This document shows, piece after piece, positions 3,418 through 63,986 of a DNA stretch of 64,000 bases (its first letter is position 1; each line of letters starts with the position of its first letter). The position numbers and the translations under genes are program-made. Source of the DNA: an uncultured Prevotellaceae bacterium (GTDB lineage Bacteria; Bacteroidota; Bacteroidia; Bacteroidales; Bacteroidaceae); assembly GCA_902780635.1 (NCBI GenBank), contig CACZGH010000001.1:124001-188000 (forward strand), given 5' to 3'. Below the pieces are notes generated by a model. The model worked only from the letters and a program-made list of their open reading frames with translations, did not search any database and was not told where the DNA came from.

Positions 3418-5952
3418 ATGAAATTATCAGATCTGAAGACAGGAGAAAAAGGCGTCATCGTCAAGGTGCTTGGCCATGGCGGATTCAGAAAACGCATAGT
3501 GGAGATGGGGTTCATCAAAGGCACCACTGTGGAAGTGTTGCTGAACGCTCCGTTGCAAGACCCTGTGAAGTATAAGATACTGGGCTATGAAGTATCCCTG
3601 CGCCACGACGAGGCTGCGATGATAGAGATTATCTCCATCGAGGAGGCGAAAGAGTTTGAGAAGACCCAACAGCAAGATAATCAGAGAGGCAACGTCTCTG
3701 ATGACGAGGAGATGCCCCTCAGCGCACAACAATTGCATGACGCTGCCCTGAAACGCCGCCGTCGCATCAATGTGGCTCTTGTGGGCAACCCCAACTGCGG
3801 TAAGACTTCGCTCTTCAACTTCGCCTCCGGCTCCCATGAACGTGTAGGCAATTACTCCGGTGTGACTGTCGATGCCAAGGAGGGTTATGCTCGTTTCGAG
3901 GGATATGAGTTCAACATCATCGACCTGCCCGGCACTTACTCCCTCTCGGCATACAGTCCTGAGGAACTCTACGTGAGGAAGCAGATCATCGAAAAGACGC
4001 CCGACATCATCATCAACGTGATAGACACCAGCAACCTGGAGCGCAACCTCTATCTGACGACCCAGTTGATAGACATGAACCTGCGTATGGTATGCGCGCT
4101 CAACATGTTTGATGAGACGGAGCGTCGCGGCGACCATATCGACTACAACAAAATCGGCGAGTTGTTTGGAGTGCCGATGATTCCCACTGTTTTCAAGACT
4201 GGACGCGGTGTGGACCTGCTGTTTCACATCATCATCAACCTCTATGAGGGTGTCGACTTTGTGGACAAAGACGGCAACATCAACCCCGAGGTGGCTGCCG
4301 ACATCCAGAAATGGCACAAAGACTATGAGAACCATCATGGCGGCGACCATGCCGAGGACTTCGCCCATGGCCCCAAGCGCAACAAGCCGGTCTACCGCCA
4401 TATCCATATCAACCATGGCACTTATGTGGAAGAGGGTATTGAGACGGTGAAGTCTGTCTTGCAACGTGAAGAACAAGTGCGCCACCGCTACTCCACCCGT
4501 TATCTTTCCATCAAACTTCTGGAAATGGACAAGGAGACCGAGCGTCTGGTGCGCACCCTGCCCTCTGCCAAAGAGATATTTGCCGCCCGCGACCGCGCCG
4601 CTGCGAAGATCAAGGAAGACACCAAAGAAGACAGCGAGACGGCCGTGATGGATGCCAAGTATGGATTCATCCATGGTGCCCTGCAAGAGGCGCAATATGC
4701 GGAAGGCACGAAGACAGACACCTACCACACCACTCATCTTCTCGACAAGCTGATCACTCATCGCTATTTAGGCTTCCCCATCTTTATTCTGATGCTCTAT
4801 CTGATGTTTCAGACCACTTTCTCTTTGGGACAGTATCCGATGGACTGGATTGATGCAGGCTTCAGTGCCCTTGGCGAGTGGTTGGGAGAAGTCATGCCCG
4901 CAGGCCCTCTGCGCGACATGCTCGTAGATGGTGTGATAGGCGGTGTGGGTGCCGTCATCGTCTTCCTGCCACAGATACTGATTCTCTATGCGTTCATCTC
5001 CTTCATGGAAGACTCCGGTTATATGGCTCGCGCCGCCTTTATCATGGACAAATTGATGCACCGTATGGGGCTTCACGGCAAATCGTTCATCCCCCTGATC
5101 ATGGGTTTCGGCTGCAATGTGCCCGCCATCATGGCCTCCCGCACGATAGAGAGCCGCAAGTCACGTATGATCACGATGCTGATTCTTCCGTTTATGAGTT
5201 GTTCGGCCCGTCTGCCCATCTACCTGATGATCATAGGGTCATTTTTCGCCGTCAAATACCAATCGACGGTGATGATCTCGCTCTATGTGATCGGTATTTT
5301 GGTGGCTATTGTGATGAGCCGTCTCTTCAGCCGTTACCTCATCAAAGGCGAGGACACACCATTTGTGATGGAACTTCCCCCCTACCGTTTCCCCACTAGC
5401 AAAGCCATGTTTCGCCACACCTGGGAGAAAGGCAAACAGTATCTGAAGAAGATGGGAGGTATCATCTTGGTGGCCAGCATCATCGTCTGGGCGCTGGGTT
5501 ATTTCCCCCACAACGACCAGCTGTCCAAGCAAGAGCAGCAGGAGCAGAGCTATATCGGCCATATCGGCAAGGCCATCGAGCCCGTATTCCGTCCACAGGG
5601 TTTCAGTTGGAAGCTCGATGTGGGTTTGCTCGCTGGTGTGGGAGCCAAGGAAATTGTCGCCTCGACACTGGGTGTGCTTTACGCCGACAACGAAGAGATA
5701 GGCAATGATGCCAATGGCAACGACTACCCTGTATTGCATGAAAAAATGGCAGCCGACGGTGTGGACACTCAAGTGGCATTCTGTTTCCTGTTGTTCGTAT
5801 TGCTATATTTCCCCTGTATCGCAACGATTGCAGCCATCAAGAATGAGACGGGCAGTTGGAAATGGGCTATATTTGCGGCCTGTTATACCACTGCCGTGGC
5901 TTGGATAATCTCAGCAGTTGTGTATCAGGCAGGAAGGCTGTTAGGATTATAA
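3418..5952 (+). CDS. feoB: Ferrous iron transport fusion protein FeoA-FeoB
   Basis: This protein takes up Fe(II) across the inner membrane. Residues 1-77 are a FeoA (SH3-like) domain. A charged linker follows to about residue 115, then the FeoB G domain with P-loop GNPNCGKTS (about 123-131), DLPG (G3) and NMFDE (G4). From about residue 450 onward it has the FeoB core with multiple membrane segments, including Gate-type regions around MGFGCNVPAIMASRT. The 844-residue length fits a FeoA-FeoB fusion, common in Bacteroidota. A small Cys-rich protein of the FeoB-associated type follows. In most gammaproteobacteria FeoA and FeoB are separate. Regulation was not visible apart from a -7 box upstream. 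Confidence 0.96.
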   Translation: MKLSDLKTGEKGVIVKVLGHGGFRKRIVEMGFIKGTTVEVLLNAPLQDPVKYKILGYEVSLRHDEAAMIEIISIEEAKEFEKTQQQDNQRGNVSDDEEMPLSAQQLHDAALKRRRRINVALVGNPNCGKTSLFNFASGSHERVGNYSGVTVDAKEGYARFEGYEFNIIDLPGTYSLSAYSPEELYVRKQIIEKTPDIIINVIDTSNLERNLYLTTQLIDMNLRMVCALNMFDETERRGDHIDYNKIGELFGVPMIPTVFKTGRGVDLLFHIIINLYEGVDFVDKDGNINPEVAADIQKWHKDYENHHGGDHAEDFAHGPKRNKPVYRHIHINHGTYVEEGIETVKSVLQREEQVRHRYSTRYLSIKLLEMDKETERLVRTLPSAKEIFAARDRAAAKIKEDTKEDSETAVMDAKYGFIHGALQEAQYAEGTKTDTYHTTHLLDKLITHRYLGFPIFILMLYLMFQTTFSLGQYPMDWIDAGFSALGEWLGEVMPAGPLRDMLVDGVIGGVGAVIVFLPQILILYAFISFMEDSGYMARAAFIMDKLMHRMGLHGKSFIPLIMGFGCNVPAIMASRTIESRKSRMITMLILPFMSCSARLPIYLMIIGSFFAVKYQSTVMISLYVIGILVAIVMSRLFSRYLIKGEDTPFVMELPPYRFPTSKAMFRHTWEKGKQYLKKMGGIILVASIIVWALGYFPHNDQLSKQEQQEQSYIGHIGKAIEPVFRPQGFSWKLDVGLLAGVGAKEIVASTLGVLYADNEEIGNDANGNDYPVLHEKMAADGVDTQVAFCFLLFVLLYFPCIATIAAIKNETGSWKWAIFAACYTTAVAWIISAVVYQAGRLLGL

Positions 5953-9463: not shown

Positions 9464-9634
9464 TATGAGTGAAACTTAAATGACGTCTTTCTGAAATTTA
9501 TATTTAGATGGAGAAAGACTGTGTATGTCTAATGGAGAAACCGTTATTTATGATTTATTAACAAGAGGAGACAAGCAAAACGACTTTTGTTCATCAAAAC
9601 ATATCAAACAGTCACAAATATCAGATTTATTTTG

Positions 9635-9642
9635 TATTTTTG
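9635..9642 (+). promoter_or_regulatory. -7 box of C10 protease promoter
   Basis: TATTTTTG fits TAnnTTTG and lies only 17 bp before the ATG at 9659. It shows that the in-frame ATG at 9587 is upstream of transcription start and not the true start. Confidence 0.65.
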
Positions 9643-9658
9643 CAGAAAACATTCATCT

Positions 9659-12600
9659 ATGAAAACAAACATAGCTTTTTTTCTTTTCTTCTTGATGGCG
9701 CTATATAGCCATGCCAACCCCATCGATCCACAGCAGGCGATGAAACTCGCTGAGACATATGCCGTTGACGGGCAACAGATGACTCTGCGTAAGGCTCCAC
9801 ATCTTCAGGAATCCACTACCTCAGAGCCCTACTATATCATCTCCAGAGGGGCAGGCCAAGGCTATGTCATCGTAGCTGGCGACGACTGTATCCCGTCGAT
9901 TATCGGATATGTGGAACAAGGAGACTTCGATGAGAGCGACGCCCCACCCCAACTGCTGTCACTCTTGCGACACTATGCCACTATCGTAAAGACCCTGCAA
10001 AGAGAAGGACGCAACACCCCTTACCGTGTCAACGGCTTGCGACGAATGCCCCAAGCCACCAACCGCGTCAATATCGCCCCCTTGCTTACCTCACACTGGA
10101 AACAGGATTCCCCCTACAATGACAAAGTGCCCCGACTTGCCAACGGCAACCGTTGTGCTGCTGGCTGTGTGGCCATCGCCGGTGGTCAGGTGTTCTACTA
10201 CTGGCGCCGCGACATGCCAGATGCCTTACCCGCCACCACCCCTACCTACGACTTCGGCGTGCCCGTCACCTCCGAATACCAGATCATGCACGGCACTCCC
10301 CTGAAATGGGACCTGATGTGCGACTCCTACTCCAACCAACCTTCAGAATACCGTGACGCCGTAGCCACCTTTGTGGCGGCACTCGGTATGCAGACCTGGA
10401 TGGAATATGGAGAGTCATCAGGCGCCTATATCTGGAATCTGCCCTATGAGATGTATAACCTGCACTCCAAGCAGGCCAACAAAGACGATGGTTATACGGA
10501 TGACAAATGGTCGGCCCTGATATATGCCGACCTGTTGAAAGGCCATCCCCTGGTCTACTCCGGCTATAACGACGACTGGGAAGGTCATGCCGTAGTCATA
10601 GACGGCTATAGAGCTGGTGGTGACCTCTTTCACTTCAACTACGGATGGGGCGGTCAGGGCGACGGCTACTTCACCGTCTATGAGAGTGGCGACAACAATG
10701 TCTCCTTCCCTGTAAGTCCCACGGTGATGTACGACATCTACCCTATCAACCAACACAAGAAAGTGGATATCGAACTGCCCAAGACCATCTATGCCAAAGC
10801 CACCAATGAAGTGACGGTGACGGTGACCAATCGCTCCGTCCTCCCCTATTCTGGCATATACCTCTTCGCCAACAACACTGGCAATAAGCCCACCAGTCTG
10901 ACGTCAGCCCATTCGTCAGACACGGAGACCGTCTTTGAAACCGACCAACCGTCCTCCATCACCCTGACCATCAAGCCCACAGCCGACGATACCTGCCATA
11001 TTTTTGTGACCGATGCCCAACTCAAAGTGCTGGCCAGCAAGACGGTGATGGCAGAAGCCGGCGAAACACAATTGTATGGTGAGCGGCTGACTCTCAACGG
11101 CAGCAGTGCCACTGAGCAACATGGCGCAGACACCTACACCGTGGTCTACAACAAGAAAGTCACAGTCACTGCCCAGATCCGCAATGAGAGCGCAGGTGGC
11201 TATGAGGGCAATTTGCAGGCTGACGTCTATGAGACCACCGATGACGGCGAAACCTGGCAATATATAGGCTACCGCGCCGGTTCTCTGACTGTAGGTGCCC
11301 ATTCGACTGGCGAAGTGGCTTTCAACCTGACTAAATCCGCCTCGCTACCTATCACGACCGACAAACTTTACCGAGTGAGCCTCCATCCGGTGACACGTGT
11401 GAGCAAAGACACCCTGCACCTGGAACTGATGAGCGACACCGCCCAATATTTTATACTCCACGAAACCGACCTGGCTGTGGAGCGTTATGAAAACAGGATG
11501 CTCAGCCTCACCGGCCACTGGGATGCCGCACAGTTTTACTCCCTTTCCATTGCCAACAACTCTACCTATAAAGACGCTGTCGGCTACGACCTTACCCAAG
11601 TGGAGGATATCGGCCAACTCGTGCAGACGGAAGCCAACCCCAATGCCCTCTTCTATGTGGCAGACACATCGACAGCACAAGGTGTCAATGTGGTGAAAGG
11701 TGGCCTCTGCCAAGACCTAAGGCTGACCCCAGGCTACGACTTCATGCCCCTCGCTGACTTCCATGCCACCAACGCTGTCATCACCATGGACGGGAAGGTA
11801 GCCCGCTGGCAGTTGCTCACCGTACCCTTCACAGCACAGGTACCCGACGGTATCATCGCCCGACGTATCGACGGCCACTCCGCCTCAGGCATCGCTAACC
11901 GCACCACCGATGTAAAGACCCTTGAAGCCGGCAAGACTTACCTGATGATGACTTCGAGCCTACGTAACATCACTCTCGCTGGCGCAGACACTGACATCAG
12001 TGCCACACCAATGGCCAATGCCGACACCGCCGTTGTAGGCACATACACCACGATCATGGCTCCAGAGAAATCTTTCGTGCTGACCGACACAGACAACCAA
12101 TTTTTTGACCACACGACAGAGGGCACCACCATCAAAGCCCTGCATGGCTATCTATCGGCGACGAACCTAACCAGCCGTTTCCAGGCCAACTCCAATACAA
12201 CCAAAGACCCTGCCTATCAGACGCTTGCTCAAAACATCGAACAAGCATATCATTTATTGGATAAATACCGCAGCGTGGTGACAGCAGAAGCCTATGAGAC
12301 CTATCTTGCAGCCATCCAAGAGGCAGAATGGGAATTCAGTCATCGTGACGAGACGACCCTCACTTATGCGCAAAAAATTCAAAACTATGCTGCACACCTG
12401 CTCGAACAAGGAGAGAGCTATATGCGCCAGGTCACAGAAGTGGGCAATATGGAAATTGACTTCACCTCGATGATCAAGAACCCTTCATTTGAACAGAAGA
12501 CCACCATCGGCTGGACGTTGACCACCCCACTGAGCCCCAACGTCACTGCTTCGACTGCCGCACGCGTGTTTGCCAACTCCTCACTCAACTACTACTGTGC

Positions 12601-20137: not shown

Positions 20138-21304
20138 ATGAAAAAGGTACATCTTTGTTTAGCTCACATGAGTGGGAATGAGATGAAATACATTCAGGAA
20201 GCATTTAATACTAACTGGGTAGCACCTCTTGGCCCTAATGTCAATGCCTTTGAGCAAGACCTTGAGCGCTTTGCCGGCGAGGACAAGAAAGTGGTGGCAC
20301 TGGCCTCCGGCACCGCCGCTGTACATCTGGCCATGGTTTGTCTTGGTGTGGGTAAAGGCGACGATGTCATCTGCCAGAGTTTCACTTTCGCAGCCACCTG
20401 CAATCCTGCCGTCTACCTGGGTGCCACCCCTGTTTTGGTAGGCTCTGAAGAAGCCACTTGGAACATGGACCCCAACAAGCTTGAAGACGCCATCAAGGAC
20501 CGCATTCAGAAGACGGGTAAAAAACCCAAAGCTATTGTGCCGGTCTACATGTATGGCATGCCAGCCTATATCGACGAGATCATGGAGATTGCCAACCGTT
20601 ATGAGATTCCCGTAATAGAAGACTCTGCCGAGGCTTTCGGCTCTAAATACAAAGGCAAGATGACCGGTACTTTCGGCCGTTTCGGCATCATGAGTTTCAA
20701 TGGCAACAAAATGATCACCACTTCTGGTGGCGGTGCACTGATATGTCCCGACGAGGCAACCAAGAAGAAAGCGATGTTTTATGCCACCCAAGCCCGCGAG
20801 GACAAACCCTATTACCTGCATGAGGAGATCGGTTTCAACTATCGTATGAGTAATGTCTGCGCCGGTATTGGACGGGGTCAGATGACGGTGGTCTATGATC
20901 ACATCAAGCATCACCAGCATATCGCCCAATTGTATGCTGACGCATTCCGCAACATAGAGGAAATCAAGGTACATATGGCCCCAGAGAGCTACATGGAGCC
21001 CAACTACTGGCTGAGTACAGTCACGTTTGAGAAGTCACGCTCCAATGGTGTCTATGGTGTGGCCTGCGAGCCCAACGACCAAGTGATGCGTTCGATGCAA
21101 GCCCTCTCCGCTGTGGGTATCGAGTCTCGCCCCTTGTGGAAACCTATGCACAGCCAGCCCGTATACAAAGATGCTCCTGCCTATGAAGACGGCACGTCAG
21201 AGCGTTTGTTCCAGAAAGGCCTTTGCCTGCCCTCTGGTCCCTGTGTGACCGACGAGGACGTCGAACTAATCGTGAAGACATTGAAAGAGAGTGTCGTCTT
21301 ATAG
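20138..21304 (+). CDS. DegT/DnrJ/EryC1/StrS-type sugar aminotransferase
   Basis: 388-residue PLP enzyme that transfers an amino group to a keto-sugar nucleotide. The substrate-site Ser/Thr region ALASGTAAVHLA, the IVPVYMYGMPA strand, EDSAEAFGS and the PLP Lys K191 in FNGNKMITTSGGG are all present. The ATG at 20138 (MKKVHLCLAHMSG) is chosen over the in-frame ATG at 20090 because family members start there. The next gene is a nucleotide-sugar 4,6-dehydratase, so the pair probably makes a UDP-4-amino-4,6-dideoxy-HexNAc (PglE/PglF logic) for a surface glycan or glycoprotein. The exact sugar is not predictable. Confidence 0.92.
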   Translation: MKKVHLCLAHMSGNEMKYIQEAFNTNWVAPLGPNVNAFEQDLERFAGEDKKVVALASGTAAVHLAMVCLGVGKGDDVICQSFTFAATCNPAVYLGATPVLVGSEEATWNMDPNKLEDAIKDRIQKTGKKPKAIVPVYMYGMPAYIDEIMEIANRYEIPVIEDSAEAFGSKYKGKMTGTFGRFGIMSFNGNKMITTSGGGALICPDEATKKKAMFYATQAREDKPYYLHEEIGFNYRMSNVCAGIGRGQMTVVYDHIKHHQHIAQLYADAFRNIEEIKVHMAPESYMEPNYWLSTVTFEKSRSNGVYGVACEPNDQVMRSMQALSAVGIESRPLWKPMHSQPVYKDAPAYEDGTSERLFQKGLCLPSGPCVTDEDVELIVKTLKESVVL

Positions 21305-21320
21305 CACCTATCCACTACCC

Positions 21321-23267
21321 ATGAGAGATTTGTTTAAAAAACTTCTAAACTGGTATTTCACTAAAAATGCACTTCCCTACTGGGCAGTATTGTTGCTTGA
21401 CTGCTTGATCTGTTACCTGTCGGGATTGTTTGTATTCTGGTTTCTCACCAGCACTCATGGTGTGCTGACTCACATCGTGCCCGTATCAGAGACGATATTT
21501 GTCTACATGATATTCAACCTGATCGGTTTCCGTGTTTTCCACACCTACTCAGGAGTTGTACGCTACTCCTCTTTTGTCGACTTGCGCCGTGTAGGCTATG
21601 CCATGATTCTGTCATGCTTCATAGCCGAGGTGATCCATTATCCGCTGCTCTACTTCTATCTGGGCTACCTCACCTCCACGCACAGACCGTTGTTCTACCC
21701 CCTTACCGGACGCCAGATCCTTGCCATGTATGTACTGGCGATGATTCTGATGTGGGTTTGGCGCGTGGTGGTCAAGACCATTTTTGACGTATCGTATCAA
21801 AAAGAGAAAGCCCTGCGCACGTTGGTGTATGGAGTGAGAGACGGTGGTGTGGGACTGGCCAAGAACATCCGCAACCAAAAGGATGCCAAATTCTCCCTTC
21901 AAGGGTTCCTCACCCAAGACAAGAGTTATAAGGGCAAAATACTGATGGGCGAGAAAGTATATATCGCCGATGATCATTTACCCCGAATACTTGAGAAGCA
22001 TCGTATTCAAGCTGTGCTCATCTCACCACTGCAAAATGAGCGTTTCAGGAAAGACCAAGTTCTGCAGGACATGTTGATTAATGCCGATGTCAAGATTTTC
22101 ATGACAGAAGGCACTAAGGAATGGTCGAAGGACATGAAGTTTAACTCCTCTCAGCTTAAACAAATCAGCGTGGAAGACCTGCTGCCTCGCGATGAGATAG
22201 AGGTAGACATGGAAAAAGTGGGTGAGATGTTGACAGGCAAGAAAATTCTGGTGACAGGCTCAGCCGGTTCGATTGGCTCAGAAATCGTGAGACAGATCAG
22301 CGACTATCGGCCTGCAGAACTGATGCTGATTGACTCTGCCGAGACCCCACAGCATGACATCCGGCTGATGATGGCCCGTCGCTGGCCGTCGATCAAGACC
22401 ACAACGATAGTAGGTTCGATCTCCAATGCCCGTCGTATGGAGTATATATTTGAGACGTTCCGTCCAGATTATGTATTTCATGCTGCAGCATACAAGCATG
22501 TCCCCATGATGGAGGACAACCCCAGCGAGAGTGTCCAAAACAATATCTACGGCACGAAAGTAATGGCCGACCTGAGTGTGAAATACGGTGTGAAGAAGTT
22601 TGTCATGCTTTCAACAGACAAAGCCGTCAATCCCACCAATGTAATGGGTTGCTCGAAACGTATCTGCGAAATCTATGTGCAGAGTCTGGACAAAGCCATC
22701 AAAGAGGGCAAAGTGAAGGGAATCACACAATTTGTGACCACGCGCTTTGGCAATGTACTTGGCAGCAACGGCTCGGTGATACCTCTTTTTGAGCGGCAAA
22801 TCAAAGCCGGTGGCCCGGTGACCGTGACCGACGAGCGCATCATCCGTTTCTTCATGCTGATACCTGAAGCCTGCAAACTGGTGTTAGAGGCTGGCACACA
22901 TGGCAAAGGCGGCGAGATTTTCGTCTTCGACATGGGCGAGCCTGTGCGTATCGCAGACCTGGCCAAGCGTATGATCAGGCTGAGTGGCGCTAAGAACGTG
23001 GAAATCAAGTACACAGGTTTGCGGCCTGGTGAGAAACTTTATGAGGAAGTGCTCTCGACTGAAGAGAACACAAAACCAAGTTTCCATGACAAAATCCGCA
23101 TCGCTGAGGTAAGGGAATACGATTTCGCCGAGGTGGAACAAGACATAGCAGAACTCATACGTATCTCTGACACCTATGACGCGATGGCCACTGTGCGTAA
23201 GATGAAGGAAATGGTGCCTGAATATGTCTCCAACAACTCGATTTATTCAAAATTAGACAAGGCATGA
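21321..23267 (+). CDS. Membrane nucleotide-sugar 4,6-dehydratase (CapD/WbpM/PglF type)
   Basis: 648 residues. Four N-terminal membrane helices (about 20-150) are followed by a first Rossmann-like domain (about 160-280), then the SDR domain with GSAGSIGSEI (NAD-binding). HAAAYKHVPMMEDNP and STDKAVNPTNVMGCSKR follow; as in WbpM, Met stands where SDRs usually have Tyr. The enzyme makes UDP-2-acetamido-4-keto-6-deoxyhexose, the substrate for the aminotransferase just upstream. The ATG at 21321 lies 17 bp after the upstream stop; an ATG at 21291 would overlap it. This is the last gene of the pair; the next gene is convergent. Confidence 0.93.
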   Translation: MRDLFKKLLNWYFTKNALPYWAVLLLDCLICYLSGLFVFWFLTSTHGVLTHIVPVSETIFVYMIFNLIGFRVFHTYSGVVRYSSFVDLRRVGYAMILSCFIAEVIHYPLLYFYLGYLTSTHRPLFYPLTGRQILAMYVLAMILMWVWRVVVKTIFDVSYQKEKALRTLVYGVRDGGVGLAKNIRNQKDAKFSLQGFLTQDKSYKGKILMGEKVYIADDHLPRILEKHRIQAVLISPLQNERFRKDQVLQDMLINADVKIFMTEGTKEWSKDMKFNSSQLKQISVEDLLPRDEIEVDMEKVGEMLTGKKILVTGSAGSIGSEIVRQISDYRPAELMLIDSAETPQHDIRLMMARRWPSIKTTTIVGSISNARRMEYIFETFRPDYVFHAAAYKHVPMMEDNPSESVQNNIYGTKVMADLSVKYGVKKFVMLSTDKAVNPTNVMGCSKRICEIYVQSLDKAIKEGKVKGITQFVTTRFGNVLGSNGSVIPLFERQIKAGGPVTVTDERIIRFFMLIPEACKLVLEAGTHGKGGEIFVFDMGEPVRIADLAKRMIRLSGAKNVEIKYTGLRPGEKLYEEVLSTEENTKPSFHDKIRIAEVREYDFAEVEQDIAELIRISDTYDAMATVRKMKEMVPEYVSNNSIYSKLDKA

Positions 23268-57084: not shown

Positions 57085-58200
57085 TCATTTCATTTTTGTC
57101 TTCCGAATCAGATATTTCTTATAGAAAAAATGCCAAAATCGGGAAACGGGTCTTCCGATAATCGTTTCAGAAGGGAATTCCACAGCAAAATGCAGATTGC
57201 GATAAGTTTCCAGCAAGAACTGTTGCATCTTTGTTTTCCCTTTAAAAGAATACCGCTCATCATGTTTGCCAAAATTACCCGCATAGATAATCTCATTCAA
57301 CATCATTTTACCGATTTTTTCATTTGTCGGAGTGATAAGATATTTTTGATCTAAACCTAAAACATTTTCCATTACCCACATGACCCCACATGAGAATTTG
57401 TACATGTTGAGCCACTTCAGTGTTTTTCTCGTCTCTTCTTTCTCTTCGTCAGAAAAACCAGTCATCAACAGATAATAGTAATCAACAAAATGTCTAAGTC
57501 CTATCCCCTCAAAGAAAAAATGATGCATGATGTGCGTCATCTGGAAAATCAAATCAAACTTGCGGTCAAGGACCCATATCCACCCTGCAGAGTTGGGCAA
57601 TTCGACTTTGTTTTTGAATTGTTCCTCTTTATGCTGCTTGAAATATTTCCTCAGTCTCCATTCATAAAAAAGATTCCCCATAAATGATGGCACGAAATGA
57701 ATCTCGGCAGAGGTCGTTGTAAGGGGAACCTCTATATGATGATATTCAATATTGGCCTCAGGCATCACACTTTTGACATATTTGATGATGTCAATAGTGT
57801 CCCTGTCGGTCCATATGTCAACGTCTCCTGGTGCCCTCCATTGCGGATTGGGATACATCCTTGCATTGGCTTGCCCTTTCAACGTGCAACTTCTTATGCC
57901 AGCCCTTTCATAGAGGTATGACGTCAGCTTGGCATTATCCTTATTGACCTTTTCATTCTCTTCTTCCATGTCCTTGACATAATAATACCATTTGAGCATT
58001 ATTTTCTTGTCAAGTCGATAAGGTGTCTTGCTGAGCTTGTTGATCCCCTGAAGAATGATTCCTGCAATAGACTGCTTAATACTGAAGATATACAAATCAT
58101 TCCAAGGAATATCATTGATATTGCTTGGAATCGGTGCTTCTGGGTCAAGAGAATATTTCAGAAAGTCAGCAAAAAGAGGATTGTATTTTACATCTCTCAT
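57085..58200 (-). CDS. Nucleotidyltransferase-like protein (NTP_transf_5 type), second copy
   Basis: 371 residues. A predicted pol-beta-like nucleotidyltransferase domain with KGQANARMYPNPQWRAPGD and the acidic pair GDVDIW (about 122-127), then EIHFVPS. It is clearly a paralogue of the next upstream protein: ERYSFKGK against ERYTARKM and HFFFEGIGLRHFVDYYYLL against HFFIEGIGLRQFVDYYYAL. Members of this family occur in glycan and peptide-modification clusters, with unknown substrate. It ends the cluster; nothing recognised follows in the same direction. Confidence 0.8.
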   Translation of the reverse strand: MRDVKYNPLFADFLKYSLDPEAPIPSNINDIPWNDLYIFSIKQSIAGIILQGINKLSKTPYRLDKKIMLKWYYYVKDMEEENEKVNKDNAKLTSYLYERAGIRSCTLKGQANARMYPNPQWRAPGDVDIWTDRDTIDIIKYVKSVMPEANIEYHHIEVPLTTTSAEIHFVPSFMGNLFYEWRLRKYFKQHKEEQFKNKVELPNSAGWIWVLDRKFDLIFQMTHIMHHFFFEGIGLRHFVDYYYLLMTGFSDEEKEETRKTLKWLNMYKFSCGVMWVMENVLGLDQKYLITPTNEKIGKMMLNEIIYAGNFGKHDERYSFKGKTKMQQFLLETYRNLHFAVEFPSETIIGRPVSRFWHFFYKKYLIRKTKMK

Positions 58201-58228
58201 GATGGATGAAAAGATTAAATACAGGAGT

Positions 58229-59287
58229 TCACATTTTCCATTTCTGGTTGACTATTTTTCGTCCTATTCCCCAAAGAGCTTCAGATGGAAATATGGGCGC
58301 CAGCTTCAGCAACCGCCATACATCAGTAGCACCACGAACAAGATATCCCATTTTTCTTGCAGTATATCGCTCATCATAGCGGCCAAAATTACCACCTTCC
58401 AAAATCTCTTTCATGAGCATTTTACCGATTTTCTCATCAGGCTTTGTTATGAGACACCGATCATCAATCTCAAATATCTTTTTCTCCACCCACATCACTC
58501 CTCTGGCGAATTTCAGCATCCCAAGATGTTGAAGCGTCGTCTCGTAATCCACATCATGCTTTGCATTACTCAGCGCATAATAATAGTCCACAAATTGTCG
58601 CAGGCCGATACCCTCAATGAAAAAATGAGACATGATATGAGCGAGTTGCTGAATCAGATTAAACTCTGGAGTTGAAACAAATACCCTACCCTCGGTCTCT
58701 GGCAATTCCACCTGATGGGTAAATTGAGTGTCTGCATTCTCAAAAGCCCATTGCCTCAACCTCTTGTCAGATACGATACCGCTCATGAAACATGGACGAT
58801 AATGCACCTCCACCTCAACGTCATCGAATATGGGAAAATGTATGTGTAACCTTCCGTCTTGAGCATCAGGGCATTTTGATTTGACGAATTGAGCGATTTG
58901 GTTTCGGCTCCCCTCTATCCAGATGTCAATATCTCCTGGCATGCGTGACATCGGGTTGGGATACATCAGCGTGTTTCCCTGGCCCTTGATGATGCAATAA
59001 CGGAATCCAGCATCTTCAAAGATTTTCCCTACCTCCACCGCCCGCTGATTGAGTTTGCGATTGTCTGCTTCTATGGCGTTTTTGAATTTCATCATGTTTA
59101 TGACGCACCTCTTCTGCAACTGCACGTGGTTGTTCACCATGCATTCGATGATCAGTCCTTGCACGCTCTGTTTCTCCGCCACTTCCATCATCGCCTTAAA
59201 TTCGTAAGGCGTCATGGCAAACTGCCCCATCGGCTGTTGTGTGACAGCCGAGCGGAGCATGGAGAAAAAGAACTCAGTTTTGGTCAT
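58229..59287 (-). CDS. Nucleotidyltransferase-like protein (NTP_transf_5 type), first copy
   Basis: 352 residues from the chosen ATG. KGQGNTLMYPNPMSRMPGDIDIW contains the active-site Asp pair; EVEVHYRPCF follows. The N-terminal half is helical. Starting at the ATG at 59305 would add six residues (MHIFII); MTKTEFFFSML aligns better with its paralogue's start. It stands 34 bp behind the KAS III stop in the same orientation. The tandem copies share structure from the GDxDxW motif to the C-terminus. Confidence 0.8.
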   Translation of the reverse strand: MTKTEFFFSMLRSAVTQQPMGQFAMTPYEFKAMMEVAEKQSVQGLIIECMVNNHVQLQKRCVINMMKFKNAIEADNRKLNQRAVEVGKIFEDAGFRYCIIKGQGNTLMYPNPMSRMPGDIDIWIEGSRNQIAQFVKSKCPDAQDGRLHIHFPIFDDVEVEVHYRPCFMSGIVSDKRLRQWAFENADTQFTHQVELPETEGRVFVSTPEFNLIQQLAHIMSHFFIEGIGLRQFVDYYYALSNAKHDVDYETTLQHLGMLKFARGVMWVEKKIFEIDDRCLITKPDEKIGKMLMKEILEGGNFGRYDERYTARKMGYLVRGATDVWRLLKLAPIFPSEALWGIGRKIVNQKWKM

Positions 59288-59321
59288 GATGATGAATATA
59301 TGCACATATAAATAGAGACTA

Positions 59322-60383
59322 CTATATCTCTACAATATCACTTAATTTGCAGTCTACAAAAGGCACAATAGCTGTAGCCCATGCCATTCCGACTCCGAAA
59401 GCACTCAACATCAGTTTCTTACGCCCTTCAAGTTTCCCCTGAAGCTCGCTTACAATCGTAAGTGGCACTGACACAGAAGAAGTATTTCCGAACTTCTGGA
59501 TAGTCCATGGTATCCTTGTATTATCCAACTTCATCTTCTTGGCTATGTAATTATTGATAAAAGCATTGGCTTGATGGAAAACATAATAATCCATGGATTG
59601 TATGTCTTCGCCTGTTGTCTCCATCAGACGCTTGATGTCTTTAGGAATCTCCACAATTACAAAATTGAACACATCTGCGCCCTTCATAAATGCCTGCTCG
59701 TCAGTACGGGCATTGCCATATTCATCAATAATATATTTGCGAAGAGTCTCAGGGGTGCTCATATGGCGATACCCGCCCGCTGGAATCATGATCAGCTCAC
59801 CACGAGAACCATCCGAGTTCATGGAGAAATGGCTGTTGCCATATTTATCATCCCTTTCAATAAGCGCTGCCACTCCACCGTCTCCAAAAATAAACGCTGC
59901 CCTGCGGTCTTTACGCGAATAGACTTTGGATCGCGTCTCACCATCAAGCAACAAAGCGTAACGAAGACCGTGCTTCTCCATAAAAGAATAGACAATACTT
60001 AGCCCGAACAAGAATCCAGAACAGCCCAGATTCACATCAAAAGCTATACAAGAGGTAGGCAAGCCCAGTCTGTCCTGCAAAAGATATGATGTGGCAGGCA
60101 TCCTATAGTCTGGAGTTTGCGAAACGAAAATGAGAAGATCGATCTTAGAACGGTCAATATCATTATCTTCAAAGAGTTTTTCTGCTGCGGCAAAACAGAG
60201 ATCAGAAGAACAAGTGTTTTCATCGGCAAAACGCCGCTCGTACACACCTACCTTATCTACGACCTTCCTCACATCTTCTTCTGGAAAAATGTCGAGGTCA
60301 TATTTGTAATTGTCGATAACTCGGGAAGGAACAGCCGCAGCCATTGCCTTTATTCCAACATTTTTATAAGTTATTATAGCCAT
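59322..60383 (-). CDS. KAS III-like beta-ketoacyl-ACP synthase, first copy
   Basis: 353 residues with the thiolase fold of FabH. The catalytic Cys is C121 in NLGCSGF, His in FHQAN and Asn in FGNTSS, so the triad is complete. The start MAIITYKNVGIKAMAAAVPS is typical of KAS III proteins in Bacteroidota polysaccharide clusters. It condenses an acyl-CoA with malonyl-ACP, or transfers an acyl group. Its upstream neighbour in the transcript is the fabD remnant, and the downstream ones are the nucleotidyltransferases. Confidence 0.87.
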   Translation of the reverse strand: MAIITYKNVGIKAMAAAVPSRVIDNYKYDLDIFPEEDVRKVVDKVGVYERRFADENTCSSDLCFAAAEKLFEDNDIDRSKIDLLIFVSQTPDYRMPATSYLLQDRLGLPTSCIAFDVNLGCSGFLFGLSIVYSFMEKHGLRYALLLDGETRSKVYSRKDRRAAFIFGDGGVAALIERDDKYGNSHFSMNSDGSRGELIMIPAGGYRHMSTPETLRKYIIDEYGNARTDEQAFMKGADVFNFVIVEIPKDIKRLMETTGEDIQSMDYYVFHQANAFINNYIAKKMKLDNTRIPWTIQKFGNTSSVSVPLTIVSELQGKLEGRKKLMLSAFGVGMAWATAIVPFVDCKLSDIVEI

Positions 60384-60463
60384 AATATATCATATATCCA
60401 TGATAACAATCTCTGAGATTCTATTTATCGTGGGTTCAACAAACAAACATGTAAAATACAATG

Positions 60464-60730
60464 CACCACCGCCACCAACGGAGAGAAATCTCCTAAAGAA
60501 TGGCCAGCAACCATATCAGTATTAAAGCCATCCATACAGATAAAGGAATGAAAGAAAACTGTTTGCTCCAAGTCTTCATTAGTTCCATTGAACATAATGT
60601 CAGTGATAATTCATCCACATATCCTATTAGCATTGTTGAAAAAGAGCTTTACTTTTTCATTACTCCCATAAAAGTCTTTGCCCATCCCAACGGATTGTGT
60701 ACCCTTAACAGGGAGTAAAAGTGCTTTCAA
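60464..60730 (-). pseudogene. Remnant of fabD (malonyl-CoA:ACP transacylase)
   Basis: Read on the minus strand from 60730: TTG-AAA-GCA, as if from ATG-AAA-GCA, then LLLPVKGTQSVGMGKDFY, comparable to FPGQGSQ..GMGKDLY of FabD. Then come FFNNANRICG, an in-frame TGA, TDIMFNGTNEDLEQT, a short gap, and MDGFNTDMVAGHSLGDF, which holds the active-site Ser motif GHSLG. The C-terminal two thirds are missing. It starts 3 bp behind the ATP-grasp stop. The plus-strand frame at 60500-60718 is a shadow. It is a broken gene with the nucleophile motif still readable. Confidence 0.7.
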
Positions 60731-60732
60731 AA

Positions 60733-61737
60733 TCAGTAATAATTCAATATTTGCTTATATAATCCGATATTGTTACATTGAATTAATTCTGCGCTGGGGC
60801 ATATATTTCCTTCTATGACTTCTATACCATCTGGAGTTAATGCAATATCCCAACCTACATATCTTGCATTAGGAAGGTGTTTAGCCAATTTAACAGCATA
60901 TTCCTTCAATTCATCAAAATGGGGTATCTGGAATCCTGGCATTATTTTTTCACTTGTAGGGTGCTTAACATAATAGTTGCCAATAGAGTCCCGGCCAGCA
61001 CCATCAATTACACCAGTTTCAATATCAACATGGTAACATGTTCCTCCTCCTAAGAGGTTGTCTATCAATGCTCCTTTCCTTCCTGTTCGCAATAAAAATG
61101 CTAAAATATAAACATCTCCATGCGAATCAATACAAGTAACAACCCTAAACGTATTCAATGAAGAGTCATTCAGTTTTGCTAAAGTGGAATCATTCTTAAT
61201 ATGTTCTTCAACAACAACGGGAGCACCTGCATCTCGCACTTCAAATAATTCTTCAAGAGTATTTCCAACATGTATTCCTAAACCATAATATAAATTATTT
61301 GGCTTAATTATATACATTTTGTTTTTCAAAGACAGATAAAAATCAGATAGTTGTTGGTCTGTTGTTTTAGTGTCTATGAATAAGAAGCGTCTTTTGATAA
61401 AACCAGAAAAATATTCGTTAAATCGACCTTTATCATTAAGAATCCGATTTGACTGTTCGTCATTAAACAATCCGTTCAATTTTCTGTTTCTCCGCATTGT
61501 AACGAAGTTAGCTTTCCCTTTCCTATTTAATAATGAAAAAGAAAGGAACTCATACTCCTCAGGTGTTACCCCAGAAACAATATAGTTCCATAGGTATGTC
61601 AAGAGCGAACGTTGCTTATGTACAGTGGTGGGGGACATATTGCGATATTGAGAAAAAACTTCTACTTTTGTAAGTGTCAATTTATGATAAAAACCAGGTA
61701 ACACGTATCGAACAACTTTTTTTAAAAACCGAATCAT
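60733..61737 (-). CDS. Sugar-transfer-associated ATP-grasp protein
   Basis: 334 residues. The ATP-grasp elements are visible: KPNNLYYGLGIHVG (ATP-binding), VVEEHIK (about 172), FLLRTGRKGALIDNLLGGG (about 218-236), ITPDG-EVIEGNICPSAE (metal/ATP Glu and Asn near the end, VIEGN). The N-terminal region is helical and basic. The family called sugar-transfer-associated ATP-grasp is found in cell-surface glycan loci, but its reaction is not known (amide or ester bond formation is likely). The composition is more A+T-rich than in the left part of the window. It is flanked by two gene remnants. Confidence 0.78.
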   Translation of the reverse strand: MIRFLKKVVRYVLPGFYHKLTLTKVEVFSQYRNMSPTTVHKQRSLLTYLWNYIVSGVTPEEYEFLSFSLLNRKGKANFVTMRRNRKLNGLFNDEQSNRILNDKGRFNEYFSGFIKRRFLFIDTKTTDQQLSDFYLSLKNKMYIIKPNNLYYGLGIHVGNTLEELFEVRDAGAPVVVEEHIKNDSTLAKLNDSSLNTFRVVTCIDSHGDVYILAFLLRTGRKGALIDNLLGGGTCYHVDIETGVIDGAGRDSIGNYYVKHPTSEKIMPGFQIPHFDELKEYAVKLAKHLPNARYVGWDIALTPDGIEVIEGNICPSAELIQCNNIGLYKQILNYY

Positions 61738-61741
61738 TACT

Positions 61742-61815
61742 TTAAATATCTATTATTTCACTAATTTTGCAATCCACAAATGGCACAATGCTGTTGACTA
61801 TGCCATGCCAACTTT
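61742..61815 (-). pseudogene. C-terminal remnant of a third KAS III gene
   Basis: On the minus strand the last codons read VPFVDCKISEIIDI-stop, against VPFVDCKLSDIVEI-stop of the intact KAS III at 59322. Upstream, VGMA-stop-STA in another frame matches VGMAWATA, so a frameshift and a stop lie within 25 codons. The stop codon ends 5 bp before the ATP-grasp start. The rest of this gene is absent. Confidence 0.75.
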
Positions 61816-61913
61816 CTTAGATAATATCTAATATATCCTTTATGTAACTATTTTATGGCTTGTTTATGTATTCAGCAACATTTAACTAAACAGACAAGAT
61901 ATTAATGGGGGAA

Positions 61914-62672
61914 TCATCTTAATATGACTCCCCCATCTACAACAAGAGTATGGCCTGTTATCCATGATGATGCATCAGACAAAAGATAGATAATTGCAAA
62001 TGCAATGTCTACTGGACGGCCAAAACGACCTAAAGGGTAGGCTTTCATATTTTTCTCCAAATCAGATTCAGAAATGGTGCCTGCAGATAGGATATTTGTT
62101 GCAACAAAGCCAGGATTGACGCTGTTGCTACGTATGCCATTAGATGCCATCTCTAAAGCTAAACCTTTCATAAATGCATTCAACCCTCCCTTGGAAATAC
62201 CATACATGGTATTGCCGACAGTGGAAATCATGACTCCTCCAATAGATGATGTAAACACCACAGAACTTCCCTTGGTTATTTTTTTCTTTTTTAGTAGACG
62301 TTGAGTGAGAAGCACAGGGCCTATCATGTTAACATTTAATACTTCTGAAAGACTTTCTTGGTTGATGAATTTGACAGGTAATGTCTTGACAATACCAGCA
62401 TTCAGTGAAACGCCATCTAAATGTGGAAGAGAATCAGCAAAATTGTATATATTGTCGACTTCAGAAAGATCGGAAAGAATCATCTCGTGTTTTTGACCAA
62501 AAGACAGGTCAAGGCATTCAAATGTCTTTTTCAGACGAGATTCATTTCTGGCAGTGATGATTACTGTCGCTCCCATCTTGGAACATTCTATGGCAGTAGA
62601 TTGCCCAATTCCTGATGAAGCTCCGGTGATTAAGATCGTTTTATTCTCTAAAGTATAAGGATTATATGACAT
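61914..62672 (-). CDS. SDR-family 3-oxoacyl reductase-like protein
   Basis: 252 residues. Rossmann NAD(P) motif TGASSGIG (about 15-22), NAG motif (SLNAGIV), the catalytic Ser in FTSSIGG, and YGISKGG (Tyr-x3-Lys), all FabG-like, with the usual ending ITGHTLVVDGGVILR. It would reduce the beta-keto group of an acyl-ACP made by the KAS III. ATG 62672 overlaps the KAS III stop by 11 bp; an ATG at 62708 would overlap by 47 bp. Confidence 0.85.
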   Translation of the reverse strand: MSYNPYTLENKTILITGASSGIGQSTAIECSKMGATVIITARNESRLKKTFECLDLSFGQKHEMILSDLSEVDNIYNFADSLPHLDGVSLNAGIVKTLPVKFINQESLSEVLNVNMIGPVLLTQRLLKKKKITKGSSVVFTSSIGGVMISTVGNTMYGISKGGLNAFMKGLALEMASNGIRSNSVNPGFVATNILSAGTISESDLEKNMKAYPLGRFGRPVDIAFAIIYLLSDASSWITGHTLVVDGGVILR

Positions 62673-63753
62673 GGATTTTATCTGTTTCTTCATCATCGAC
62701 CTCAACAAGGTCAGAAATTGTTAGTAAATCTGTTTTAAATGCAACAGTACCCCAAGATAAGCCAACTCCAAAACCACAGCAAATAAATGTCGTAGGTTGA
62801 TTCTCAACTTTTCCTTTTAATTCGGCTACTATTGTCATAGGTATGCTTGCTCCGTTGGTGTTACCAAAATGATACATGCTGGAGGGCACTTTCTCTGGAG
62901 CTAATTTGAGCTTTTTGGCAATCATGTTATTCATTTTCATGTTGGCTTGATGAAAAATGAAATAATCAGCCTCTTGATAGTCAAAACCATAATGCTCCGA
63001 GAGTTTCTTGACAGATTTTGGTGCAGTAGTAATTCCAAAAGAGAAAACATCCATTCCTTTCATCCTTGACTGAAGCCTAGTTGTTTCTTTACCTTCAAAT
63101 ACTTCTTCATCAAAGCTAGAAATTGTAGCGGGATTTCGGCTTCCTCCATCAGGTGTAATAATAGCATCAAATCCACTTCCATCTGTGCCTACATGGAACA
63201 TAATTCCTGGAGCGCCTTCTTGGTATTCAACAGCTGTAACTGTACCAGCACTTCCAAATAAAGGATTTAGCCTACGCCTCTTTCCTCTGAATCTGGATTT
63301 GGCTTCCCCACACATCACCAAAGCTTTGCGAATAGTTCCTGATGACAATAGTGAAACTGCGGAACTAAGACCATAAACCCAACCGGAGCATCCAAGTGTC
63401 ATATCTGTTGCATAGCATTCCTTGCTTAGATTTAAGCGGTCTTGGAGAATGCATGCTGTGGCAGGAAGAATATAATCCGGTGTTTGCGAAACAAATAGAA
63501 TAGCTCCTATTTCATCTTTACTCCATCCTAGGTCTGCAATTAACTTCTCGGCGGCTGCATAGCATAAGTCTGATGTTGTTAAATCAAAACTGACTCTACG
63601 TTCTTTTACTCCTGTTGTCTTTACAAAATCTTCTGGAGAATACTCTGAAGAAATCGCATCATCTTTGGTAGGATGAAGATTGTCTGCGATATTTTTAGGA
63701 ACGCCAGCAGATATGCCGGCGATCCTAACATTCTTGAATTCCAAAAAGGCCAT
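62662..63753 (-). CDS. KAS III-like beta-ketoacyl-ACP synthase, second copy
   Basis: 363 residues. The catalytic Cys is C122 in LGCSGW, His in FHQAN, and Asn in FGNTNG; the triad is complete. It is a distinct homologue of the KAS III at 59322. It overlaps the acyl carrier protein gene by one base and the SDR gene by 11 bp, showing tight coupling. Together they form a small module for building a short keto- or hydroxyacyl-ACP. Confidence 0.88.
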   Translation of the reverse strand: MAFLEFKNVRIAGISAGVPKNIADNLHPTKDDAISSEYSPEDFVKTTGVKERRVSFDLTTSDLCYAAAEKLIADLGWSKDEIGAILFVSQTPDYILPATACILQDRLNLSKECYATDMTLGCSGWVYGLSSAVSLLSSGTIRKALVMCGEAKSRFRGKRRRLNPLFGSAGTVTAVEYQEGAPGIMFHVGTDGSGFDAIITPDGGSRNPATISSFDEEVFEGKETTRLQSRMKGMDVFSFGITTAPKSVKKLSEHYGFDYQEADYFIFHQANMKMNNMIAKKLKLAPEKVPSSMYHFGNTNGASIPMTIVAELKGKVENQPTTFICCGFGVGLSWGTVAFKTDLLTISDLVEVDDEETDKIHVI

Positions 63754-63986
63754 TATAGTTTTGCTTTTACGTTGTTGTAAAGATTCTCTACAGTAACAGC
63801 ATTTTGGATGTCATCGCCCTTTAATGCAATGTCAAATTCCTCATCGACCATAGCTATCACGCTGAGTCCAATCAATGATGACCATTCATCCAAGTCATGA
63901 AATACTGTCGTTGCTGTAATCTCGCTTGCATCGGTCTCATCAAATTGCTCTGCGAAGAGCTCTACAAATTCGTCTAAACTTTTCAT
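63753..63986 (-). CDS. Acyl carrier protein
   Basis: 77 residues, very acidic. The phosphopantetheine Ser is S37 in DEWSSLIGL, an ACP-like motif that has EWSSL instead of the DSL found in fatty acid synthase ACP. Helical throughout. It is the first gene visible of the module; the cluster probably extends beyond the window end at 64000. The deviating motif and the context indicate a dedicated carrier for a glycan or peptide acyl group, not the housekeeping AcpP. Confidence 0.85.
   Translation of the reverse strand: MKSLDEFVELFAEQFDETDASEITATTVFHDLDEWSSLIGLSVIAMVDEEFDIALKGDDIQNAVTVENLYNNVKAKL

What the first reader, a model, noticed from the sequence alone, without database searches (positions are those of the whole stretch)
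59322..63986. Dedicated ACP/KAS III/SDR module joined with an ATP-grasp and two nucleotidyltransferase-like proteins
ACP, KAS III and SDR genes overlap, so they are translated as a unit and could make acetoacetyl-ACP and then 3-hydroxybutyryl-ACP. The ATP-grasp and NTP_transf_5 proteins are known from glycan or peptide modification loci. A plausible function is attachment of a short hydroxyacyl group to an amino sugar of a surface polysaccharide, comparable to 3-hydroxybutyryl groups on O-antigen sugars. The A+T-rich composition suggests acquisition. The window ends inside the cluster.
Basis: partly seen in the sequence, partly recalled or inferred. Interest (0 to 1): 0.75.

Follow-up and report, generated by a model that had tools for sequence, protein, structure and literature searches.

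The report
Hydroxyacyl-sugar module in polysaccharide locus
This is a small dedicated fatty-acid-like assembly line inside a bacterium's surface-polysaccharide gene cluster, most likely making a short hydroxy-acid decoration for an amino sugar; it closely matches a set already proposed for the O-antigen of a fish bacterium.

Summary
ACP, KAS III and SDR genes overlap at 61914-63986 beside an ATP-grasp gene. The two NTP_transf_5 genes exist but lie outside the stated interval (57085-59305); at 59322-60383 is an unnamed second KAS III, with a broken FabD-like remnant next to it. Past the window end the contig carries a PglD-type N-acyltransferase, an initiating sugar transferase, two glycosyltransferases, candidate Wzy and Wzx, and FnlA/B/C homologues. 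A pglE-pglF-like pair for a 4-amino sugar lies in the same window (20147-23267). This matches the gene set predicted for the Flavobacterium psychrophilum O-polysaccharide, which carries 3,5-dihydroxyhexanoyl on D-Qui2NAc4N (PMC6519341), except that pglE/pglF are unlinked and the order differs. In 75 named relative loci an ACP lies directly before KAS1 in 69; ATP-grasp and NTP_transf_5 occur in 12 and 5. New member of a known, biochemically unproven kind. Ligase-bearing and GNAT-bearing variants in relatives look less known.

The parts
63753..63986 (-). acyl carrier protein (Ser37 in the W-S-S-L motif is the likely phosphopantetheine site)
   Evidence: PF00550 22.2 bits, cut-off 20.8; that Ser is kept in 54 of 54 family members aligned
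62662..63753 (-). KAS III no. 1 (KAS1): condensing enzyme
   Evidence: PF08545/PF08541; Cys122-His268-Asn298 kept; best PDB sequence match 4efi, E 2.8e-64
61914..62672 (-). SDR, likely 3-oxoacyl-ACP reductase
   Evidence: PF13561 160.6 bits; Tyr and Lys kept in 83 of 83 family members, Ser in 82; start chosen from in-frame ATGs
60733..61737 (-). ATPgrasp_ST ligase-like protein, probably a separate modification enzyme; sits between the SDR and the FabD remnant
   Evidence: PF14397 143.2 bits; model pLDDT 85.5, best Foldseek matches RimK, E 4e-10; in 12 of 75 relative loci
60467..60712 (-). remnant of a FabD-like malonyl-CoA:ACP transacylase gene (one stop, gaps, truncated)
   Evidence: tblastn with own FabD: 54% over 92 aa, E 1.9e-21; PF00698 only 11.5 bits
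59322..60383 (-). KAS III no. 2 (KAS2): second condensing enzyme
   Evidence: PF08545/PF08541; Cys-His-Asn kept; separate clade of 20 tips, support 0.988
58229..59305 (-). NTP_transf_5 protein b, possible accessory
   Evidence: PF14907 73.9 bits; D125, D127, E166 invariant in 8 aligned; NTase fold, Foldseek E 4e-5
57085..58200 (-). NTP_transf_5 protein a, possible accessory
   Evidence: PF14907 74.6 bits
20147..21304 (+). PglE-like (LegC-family) sugar aminotransferase, unlinked candidate supplier of the 4-amino group (ORF can be read from 20090)
   Evidence: PF01041 305 bits; TIGR04181 365.4 bits, cut-off 420; best PDB matches 1o61 and 4ztc, E about 1e-88
21291..23267 (+). PglF-like 658-aa UDP-GlcNAc 4,6-dehydratase, overlapping the aminotransferase gene
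   Evidence: PF02719 381.6 bits; best PDB match 5bju 'WlaL protein', E 1.5e-83

Best explanation
The genes form a dedicated miniature type II fatty-acid pathway that builds a short hydroxyacyl chain on its own carrier protein for one sugar of a Wzx/Wzy-type surface polysaccharide. Inferred steps: one KAS III condenses acetyl-CoA with malonyl on the ACP; the SDR reduces the 3-keto group to 3-hydroxybutyryl-ACP; the other KAS III extends this once more and the SDR reduces again, giving 3,5-dihydroxyhexanoyl-ACP; the PglD-type enzyme (contig C1:188018-188662) moves the acyl group to the 4-amino group of UDP-D-QuiNAc4N, made by the PglE/PglF-like pair at window 20147-23267; the Bac_transf protein starts the repeat unit on undecaprenyl phosphate; two glycosyltransferases add L-FucNAc (FnlA/B/C) and another sugar; Wzx and Wzy finish. 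Shown: the genes, their order, conservation and active-site residues. Inferred: substrates, chain length, which KAS acts first, and the acyl-ACP dependence of the PglD-type enzyme. Malonyl loading presumably uses the housekeeping FabD, since the local copy is broken. My own graded estimates: dedicated hydroxyacyl group for a nucleotide amino sugar 0.8; sugar is QuiNAc4N 0.65; C6 dihydroxy rather than C4 0.5. The single confidence below is for the general statement.
For: Locus content and order. PglD-type protein: closest PDB sequences are VioB, Neisseria pilin-glycosylation acetyltransferase, PerB and PglD. PglE/PglF-like pair. Conserved cassette: of 75 named loci ACP directly upstream in 69, SDR directly downstream in 63, PglD-type gene within 1.5 kb upstream in 50, a further KAS of any type in 65. 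KAS1 and KAS2 fall on two sides of a well-supported split (0.997 for the 118-tip group with KAS1, 0.988 for the 20-tip KAS2 clade); among 147 KAS sequences Cys 147, His 146, Asn 147 are kept. PglE-like gene in 19 of 26 same-genus genomes with a KAS1-like gene against 8 of 26 without, Fisher p 0.005. F. psychrophilum has the same predicted gene set with NMR-determined 3,5-dihydroxyhexanoyl (PMC6519341, passages).
Against: No enzyme of this module was assayed here, nor in the passages that I read. No aminotransferase was found in the locus itself; PglE/PglF are about 36 kb away, and 7 of 26 KAS1-bearing genomes show no PglE-like gene at E<=1e-70: among them the two with the closest KAS1 (G073, G035; 84-85% complete) but also G166 (99% complete) and G087 (91%), so other amino sugars are possible. 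KAS2-type enzymes proper are in 18 of the 75 named loci, so the KAS1+KAS2 pair is one version among several. The genome's second locus (C11) has a KAS2-type enzyme alone with ACP and SDR, and L089 and L056 show KAS1 with no other KAS in 21 kb, so one KAS may suffice and C4 is not excluded. The node that joins the 73 KAS1 tips alone has support of only 0.17. The 26 controls were chosen by me, not at random. FnlA, FnlB, the aminotransferase and the PglD-type protein score below NCBIfam's cut-offs.
Confidence: 0.75

Rival explanations
1. Same machinery, but only one condensation: the product is 3-hydroxybutyryl (C4), and the two KAS III are redundant, form a pair, or one acts only as an acyltransferase.
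For: Loci with one KAS exist: the genome's own C11 locus and L089, L056. N-4-linked 3-hydroxybutanoyl on QuiN4N is reported from several species (PMC8074265, passage).
Against: KAS1 and KAS2 are of distinct types, both with intact Cys-His-Asn; a further KAS of some type is present in 65 of 75 loci; the closest described set has two KAS and a C6 product.
Confidence: 0.3
2. The acyl group goes to another amino sugar (for example perosamine, Qui4N, Fuc3N) or to a hydroxyl, not to UDP-QuiNAc4N.
For: No aminotransferase was found in the locus; PDB relatives of the PglD-type protein include VioB and PerB, which act on dTDP- and GDP-sugars (recalled); several other DegT-family genes exist in the genome; the nearest relatives show no PglE-like gene.
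Against: PglE/PglF-like pair in the same window with best PDB matches 4ztc/1o61 and 5bju; enrichment of PglE-like genes with the module; a Bac_transf initiator next to the PglD-type gene.
Confidence: 0.3
3. The ATP-grasp takes part, forming an amide between an amino acid and the hydroxyacid, so the decoration is an acyl-aminoacyl chain.
For: The ATP-grasp gene sits between SDR and KAS2 and its model resembles RimK-type ligases. A 3-hydroxybutyryl-alanyl group on a 4-amino sugar is known from Proteus vulgaris O4 (title in the reference list of PMC8074265).
Against: ATPgrasp_ST is in only 12 of 75 relative loci and in variable positions; a FabD remnant lies beside it, which suggests an insertion or rearrangement.
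Confidence: 0.1
4. The module is a lipid, flexirubin or aryl-polyene type pathway that merely borders the polysaccharide locus.
For: KAS III, ACP and SDR also occur in such clusters (recalled).
Against: No dehydratase, aromatic starter enzyme or further elongation gene was among the 20 proteins of the locus and its edges given to Pfam; no dedicated search for such genes was run. DarB-type models match KAS1 and KAS2 with at most 24.8 bits against cut-offs of 450 and 550; a PglD-type gene is next to the cassette in 50 of 75 loci.
Confidence: 0.03

Closest known systems
Flavobacterium psychrophilum O-polysaccharide R1-group genes wfpC (KAS), wfpD (ACP), wfpE (KAS), wfpF (3-ketoacyl-ACP reductase), wfpG (PglD homologue), with fnl genes, pglE, pglF and PglC homologue wfpB (PMC6519341)
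   Same: Same gene set, including two KAS, a PglC-like initiator, fnl genes and two further glycosyltransferases.
   Different: Here the order is PglD-ACP-KAS-SDR-(ATP-grasp, FabD remnant)-KAS; pglE and pglF lie about 36 kb away; ATP-grasp and NTP_transf_5 genes are added. Sequences of the Wfp proteins were not compared; the function of the wfp set is itself a prediction.
Campylobacter jejuni Pgl pathway to UDP-N,N'-diacetylbacillosamine (PglF, PglE, PglD, PglC)
   Same: Dehydratase, aminotransferase, LbH acyltransferase and initiating transferase types.
   Different: That pathway, as described in PMC6519341, N-acetylates; here a dedicated ACP, two KAS III and an SDR are added.
Acinetobacter baumannii K loci with QhbA/QhbB or WeeI/WeeJ (PMC3628348)
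   Same: Acyltransferase predicted to add acetyl or 3-hydroxybutyryl to QuiNAc4N (passage).
   Different: A search of that paper's main text for acyl carrier, ketoacyl and oxoacyl found none.

Membership tests
F. psychrophilum-type O-PS R-group (wfpC-G) module | dedicated ACP with phosphopantetheine Ser | tested here: met
F. psychrophilum-type O-PS R-group (wfpC-G) module | two different 3-ketoacyl-ACP synthases with active-site residues | tested here: met
F. psychrophilum-type O-PS R-group (wfpC-G) module | 3-ketoacyl-ACP reductase of the SDR type | tested here: inconclusive
   SDR with catalytic residues, but below the cut-offs of the FabG models
F. psychrophilum-type O-PS R-group (wfpC-G) module | PglD-homologous acyltransferase beside the ACP | tested here: met
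   PglD_N 47.6 bits, cut-off 23.4; TIGR03570 136.5 bits, cut-off 160.8; PDB relatives
F. psychrophilum-type O-PS R-group (wfpC-G) module | pglE and pglF in the same gene cluster | tested here: not met
   They lie about 36 kb away on the same contig
F. psychrophilum-type O-PS R-group (wfpC-G) module | fnl genes for UDP-L-FucNAc in the cluster | tested here: inconclusive
   Three homologues in a row; FnlA 539.9 bits (cut-off 730) and FnlB 352.6 (cut-off 500) are below equivalog cut-offs; the third is over the wecB cut-off (212.1 against 210.15)
F. psychrophilum-type O-PS R-group (wfpC-G) module | sequence homology to WfpC-WfpG themselves | not tested
   The Wfp sequences were not at hand; unnamed relatives from other orders of the class with KAS-ACP-KAS-SDR order were found
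F. psychrophilum-type O-PS R-group (wfpC-G) module | 3,5-dihydroxyhexanoyl on D-Qui2NAc4N in the polysaccharide | not testable with these tools
   needs glycan chemistry
housekeeping FabH | score over the TIGR00747 cut-off (292.1 bits) | tested here: not met
   KAS1 170.6, KAS2 204.3, C11 copy 222.8; the genome's FabH at C31:36360-37328 scores 359
flexirubin/dialkylresorcinol DarB-type KAS | score near the DarB models' cut-offs (450 and 550) | tested here: not met
   at most 24.8 bits for the window's KAS III proteins

The most novel reading that the evidence does not exclude
The window's module is one member of a large, modular acyl-building toolkit for glycans in Bacteroidota. In 34 of 75 named relative loci it comes with an AMP-binding ligase and a second small carrier-like protein, usually with a further KAS III type and in some with an extra SDR, which would let it start from a dedicated acid other than acetate and so build polyketide-like N-acyl groups on surface sugars. 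In other orders of the class the KAS-ACP-KAS-SDR version is joined to a family-2 glycosyltransferase and a GNAT acyltransferase instead of PglD. If so, many gut and environmental polysaccharides carry unrecognised short polyketide decorations.
Probability: 0.35. Interest if true: 0.65.

Novelty: new member of a known kind. Interest (0 to 1): 0.42.

Why it matters
It extends a gene set proposed for one fish-associated bacterium to Prevotellaceae and related gut Bacteroidales, gives a simple marker (PglD-ACP-KAS-SDR) for hydroxyacylated amino sugars in surface polysaccharides, and points to a testable rule that the number and kind of condensing enzymes set the length of the decoration.

Tried and rejected
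Considered and rejected: aryl polyene, flexirubin or lipid pathway (no further pathway genes among the proteins given to Pfam; weak DarB scores); housekeeping fatty-acid genes (the genome's FabH and FabD are elsewhere); ATP-grasp and NTP_transf_5 as core parts (12 and 5 of 75 loci). The FabD remnant was first guessed by eye, got only 11.5 bits with PF00698, and was accepted only after tblastn with the genome's own FabD. In one search my first pick of the FabD frame was wrong and was replaced.

Led nowhere: paper searches for dedicated ACP/KAS genes in capsule or O-antigen loci other than F. psychrophilum (listings only) and for the names of the ATP-grasp and NTP_transf_5 families (no paper). 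PMC13101481 and PMC6959607 were opened for passages only and held nothing relevant. Structure search of the NTP_transf_5 model gave only a general nucleotidyltransferase fold with low TM-scores. Which KAS acts first could not be settled: KAS2 is closer to FabH by score, but both types also occur without the other.

Limits of the counts: family HMMs were built from members of the same loci; Pfam was run on representatives only, the ligase on one protein, and the one second carrier-like protein tested (ACP2) had no Pfam match, so its naming rests on length and motif. Some of the 75 loci are cut by contig ends. In one search I gave 52 of the 200 genomes (26 with a KAS1-like match of 234 bits or more, which is every such genome in that listing, own included; 26 without, picked by me, all at least 93% complete). 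In one search I fetched 20 of the 50 matching genomes. In one search only KAS stretches scoring over 300 bits were used, from the named loci, plus four of the genome itself. Several named loci and numbered same-genus genomes are the same assemblies (for example L037 and G073, L038 and G035).
Full report
What is there. On the minus strand, in transcription order, the window holds an ACP (63753-63986), a KAS III (62662-63753; KAS1), an SDR (61914-62672), an ATPgrasp_ST protein (60733-61737), a broken FabD-like stretch (60467-60712), a second KAS III (59322-60383; KAS2) and two NTP_transf_5 proteins (58229-59305 and 57085-58200). The ACP and KAS1 genes share one base; KAS1 and SDR overlap by 11 bases if the SDR starts at ATG 62672. 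The finding did not name KAS2 or the FabD remnant, and its interval leaves out the two NTP_transf_5 genes.

Beyond the window. The window is G000:C1:124001-188000. Upstream of the ACP (all on the same strand) follow a PglD-type LbH acyltransferase (C1:188018-188662), a Bac_transf initiating transferase (188704-189312), two GT4-type glycosyltransferases (189391-190689, 190960-192177), a protein with a sub-threshold Wzy_C match (192182-193411), a TupA-like ATP-grasp (193842-194768), a 513-aa protein with no Pfam or NCBIfam hit that I take for Wzx by inspection (195338-196879), and FnlC, FnlB and FnlA homologues (198379-202133). G+C is 39.4% over 57085-63986, 34.7% from the PglD-type gene to the putative Wzx, 54.5% in the Fnl block and 50.3% over window 1-56000. 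So the low-G+C part is the variable middle of a polysaccharide locus, which fits acquisition.

The amino sugar. I found no aminotransferase in the locus; the genome-wide DegT search places none there. The same window has, at 20147-23267 (+), a DegT-family aminotransferase overlapping a 658-aa dehydratase. Their best PDB matches are 1o61/4ztc (E about 1e-88) and 5bju 'WlaL protein' (E 1.5e-83); that these entries are C. jejuni PglE and PglF is recalled. A PglE-like gene (E<=1e-70) is found in 19 of 26 same-genus genomes with a KAS1-like gene and in 8 of 26 without, Fisher p 0.005; the controls were picked by me and are on the whole the more complete assemblies, which works against the association. 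Seven of the 26 lack it, among them the two genomes with the closest KAS1 and one that is 99% complete (G166). The PglD-type protein's closest PDB sequences are VioB (7txp, E 1.3e-18), Neisseria pilin-glycosylation acetyltransferase, PerB and PglD; the catalytic-type His (recalled from PglD) is kept in 46 of 47 family members.

Conservation. A scan of named genomes gave 75 relative loci, mostly MAGs labelled as Prevotellaceae, Paludibacteraceae and other Bacteroidales. Of these 75, an ACP lies directly upstream of the KAS1 homologue in 69, divergently in 2; an SDR directly downstream in 63; a PglD-type gene within 1.5 kb upstream in 50; a further KAS of any type in 65; an AMP-binding ligase plus a second carrier-like protein in 34; an aminotransferase somewhere in the stretch in 30; ATPgrasp_ST in 12; NTP_transf_5 in 5. 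Nine of the 75 have the order PglD-ACP-KAS-KAS-SDR. A tree of 147 KAS proteins (FastTree, rooted on the genome's FabH) separates a 20-tip KAS2 clade (support 0.988; 18 of the named loci, the window's KAS2 and the C11 copy) from a 118-tip group with KAS1 (0.997), which also holds the tandem and ligase-linked KAS; the node of the 73 KAS1 tips alone is poorly supported (0.17). By neighbour label, KAS1 homologues mostly have an ACP before and an SDR or KAS after (exceptions L040_8699, L041_11834 and L087_9998), and KAS2 homologues mostly follow an SDR (exceptions L038_8576 and the C11 copy; in the window the ATP-grasp and the FabD remnant lie between). Cys, His and Asn are kept in 147, 146 and 147 of 147. 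The ACP Ser is kept in 54 of 54 and the SDR Tyr and Lys in 83 of 83.

FabD. The remnant at 60467-60712 is 54% identical to the genome's own FabD (C9:41924-42778) over 92 residues with one stop and gaps. L085 has two FabD-like matches near its cassettes (76% to own FabD over 286 residues; 44% over 290) and L043 a short one (74% over 31 residues); no other of the loci searched had a match at E<=1e-3. So a few versions of the cassette bring their own malonyl loader; here it has decayed and the housekeeping enzyme must serve (inference).

Second locus. The same genome has on C11 another polysaccharide-type locus with ACP, a KAS2-type enzyme, an SDR and an LbH transferase (weak WbbJ match), plus a DegT aminotransferase, an NTP_transf_5 gene and ManC- and Gmd-like genes (domain checks; ManC and Gmd named by eye). 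The genome has only four KAS III-type matches in all, so a KAS2-type enzyme stands alone there.

Wider spread. In 296 genomes of the class (at least 90% complete), 50 have a KAS1-like gene at E<=1e-55, in 25 of 165 genera; apart from the window's own genome these matches are all from other orders. Of 20 of these fetched, 14 show KAS-ACP-KAS-SDR in one orientation (in L203 with a 2.3-kb gap). A family-2 glycosyltransferase like that of L216 occurs somewhere in 18 of the 20 stretches and a GNAT protein in 17 (L216 itself counted), against 1 and 0 of the 75 named loci (Pfam on four loci; the GNAT of L205 is just below cut-off). In that set a PglD-type gene was called in one locus only, L221.

Comparison with the literature. 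PMC6519341 (abstract and passages read) describes the F. psychrophilum O-polysaccharide: L-Rha, L-FucNAc and D-Qui2NAc4NR with R = 3,5-dihydroxyhexanoyl by NMR; predicted genes wfpC and wfpE (KAS), wfpD (ACP), wfpF (reductase), wfpG (PglD homologue), wfpB (PglC homologue), fnl genes, pglE, pglF and two further glycosyltransferases. Our locus has a counterpart by type for each of these, except that pglE/pglF are unlinked; no rhamnose genes were seen in it (a RmlD-like gene scoring 319.7 bits is on C9). PMC8074265 (passage) lists the 3,5-dihydroxyhexanoyl group at N-4 for V. cholerae O3 and O100, and 3-hydroxybutanoyl at N-4 for several species. PMC3628348 (passage) predicts QhbA/WeeI acyltransferases for acetyl or 3-hydroxybutyryl in Acinetobacter.

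ATP-grasp and NTP_transf_5. The ATP-grasp model (pLDDT 85.5) matches RimK best; the NTP_transf_5 model (pLDDT 87.5) has a nucleotidyltransferase fold with invariant D125, D127 and E166 in 8 sequences. Both could be active enzymes, but their scattered occurrence argues for separate decorations.

Verdict. It is a new member of a known but biochemically unproven kind. The ligase-bearing and GNAT-bearing variants in relatives are the more novel part; I saw no description of them in the listings, which cover open-licence papers only and were not aimed at those variants by name.

Noticed in passing
L006 (G000:C11:114000-133354), 7933-10641: Second polysaccharide-type locus of the same genome with ACP, a KAS2-type KAS III, an SDR and a different LbH transferase, plus NTP_transf_5 and aminotransferase genes.
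   Followed up: partly
L048, L052, L059, L099, L104 and others (34 of 75 loci): Extended cassettes with an AMP-binding ligase and a second small carrier-like protein, usually with a further KAS III and in some a second SDR; orders such as SDR-SDR2-ligase-ACP2-KAS and SDR-ACP2-ligase-KAS.
   Followed up: partly
L202-L220, e.g. L216:5673-10371: In other orders of the class a KAS-ACP-KAS-SDR-GT2-GNAT gene row recurs (GT2 in 18 and GNAT in 17 of 20 stretches), a different acyltransferase partner for the same cassette.
   Followed up: partly
window 60467-60712; L085:13865-14719 and 4973-5836; L043:13872-13964: FabD near the cassette: broken in the window, two long matches in L085 and a short piece in L043.
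   Followed up: partly
L085:4973-14719: Two ACP-KAS-SDR-KAS modules in tandem, flanked by two FabD-like matches, with a metallo-beta-lactamase-fold gene between the SDR and KAS of the first.
   Followed up: no
window 20147-23267 (+): Stand-alone overlapping pglE-pglF-like pair; the neighbouring genes look unrelated by eye.
   Followed up: partly
L004:16533-17684 (C1:202533-203684, +): A CE2/GDSL esterase-like gene just past FnlA, on the other strand, at the edge of the polysaccharide locus.
   Followed up: no
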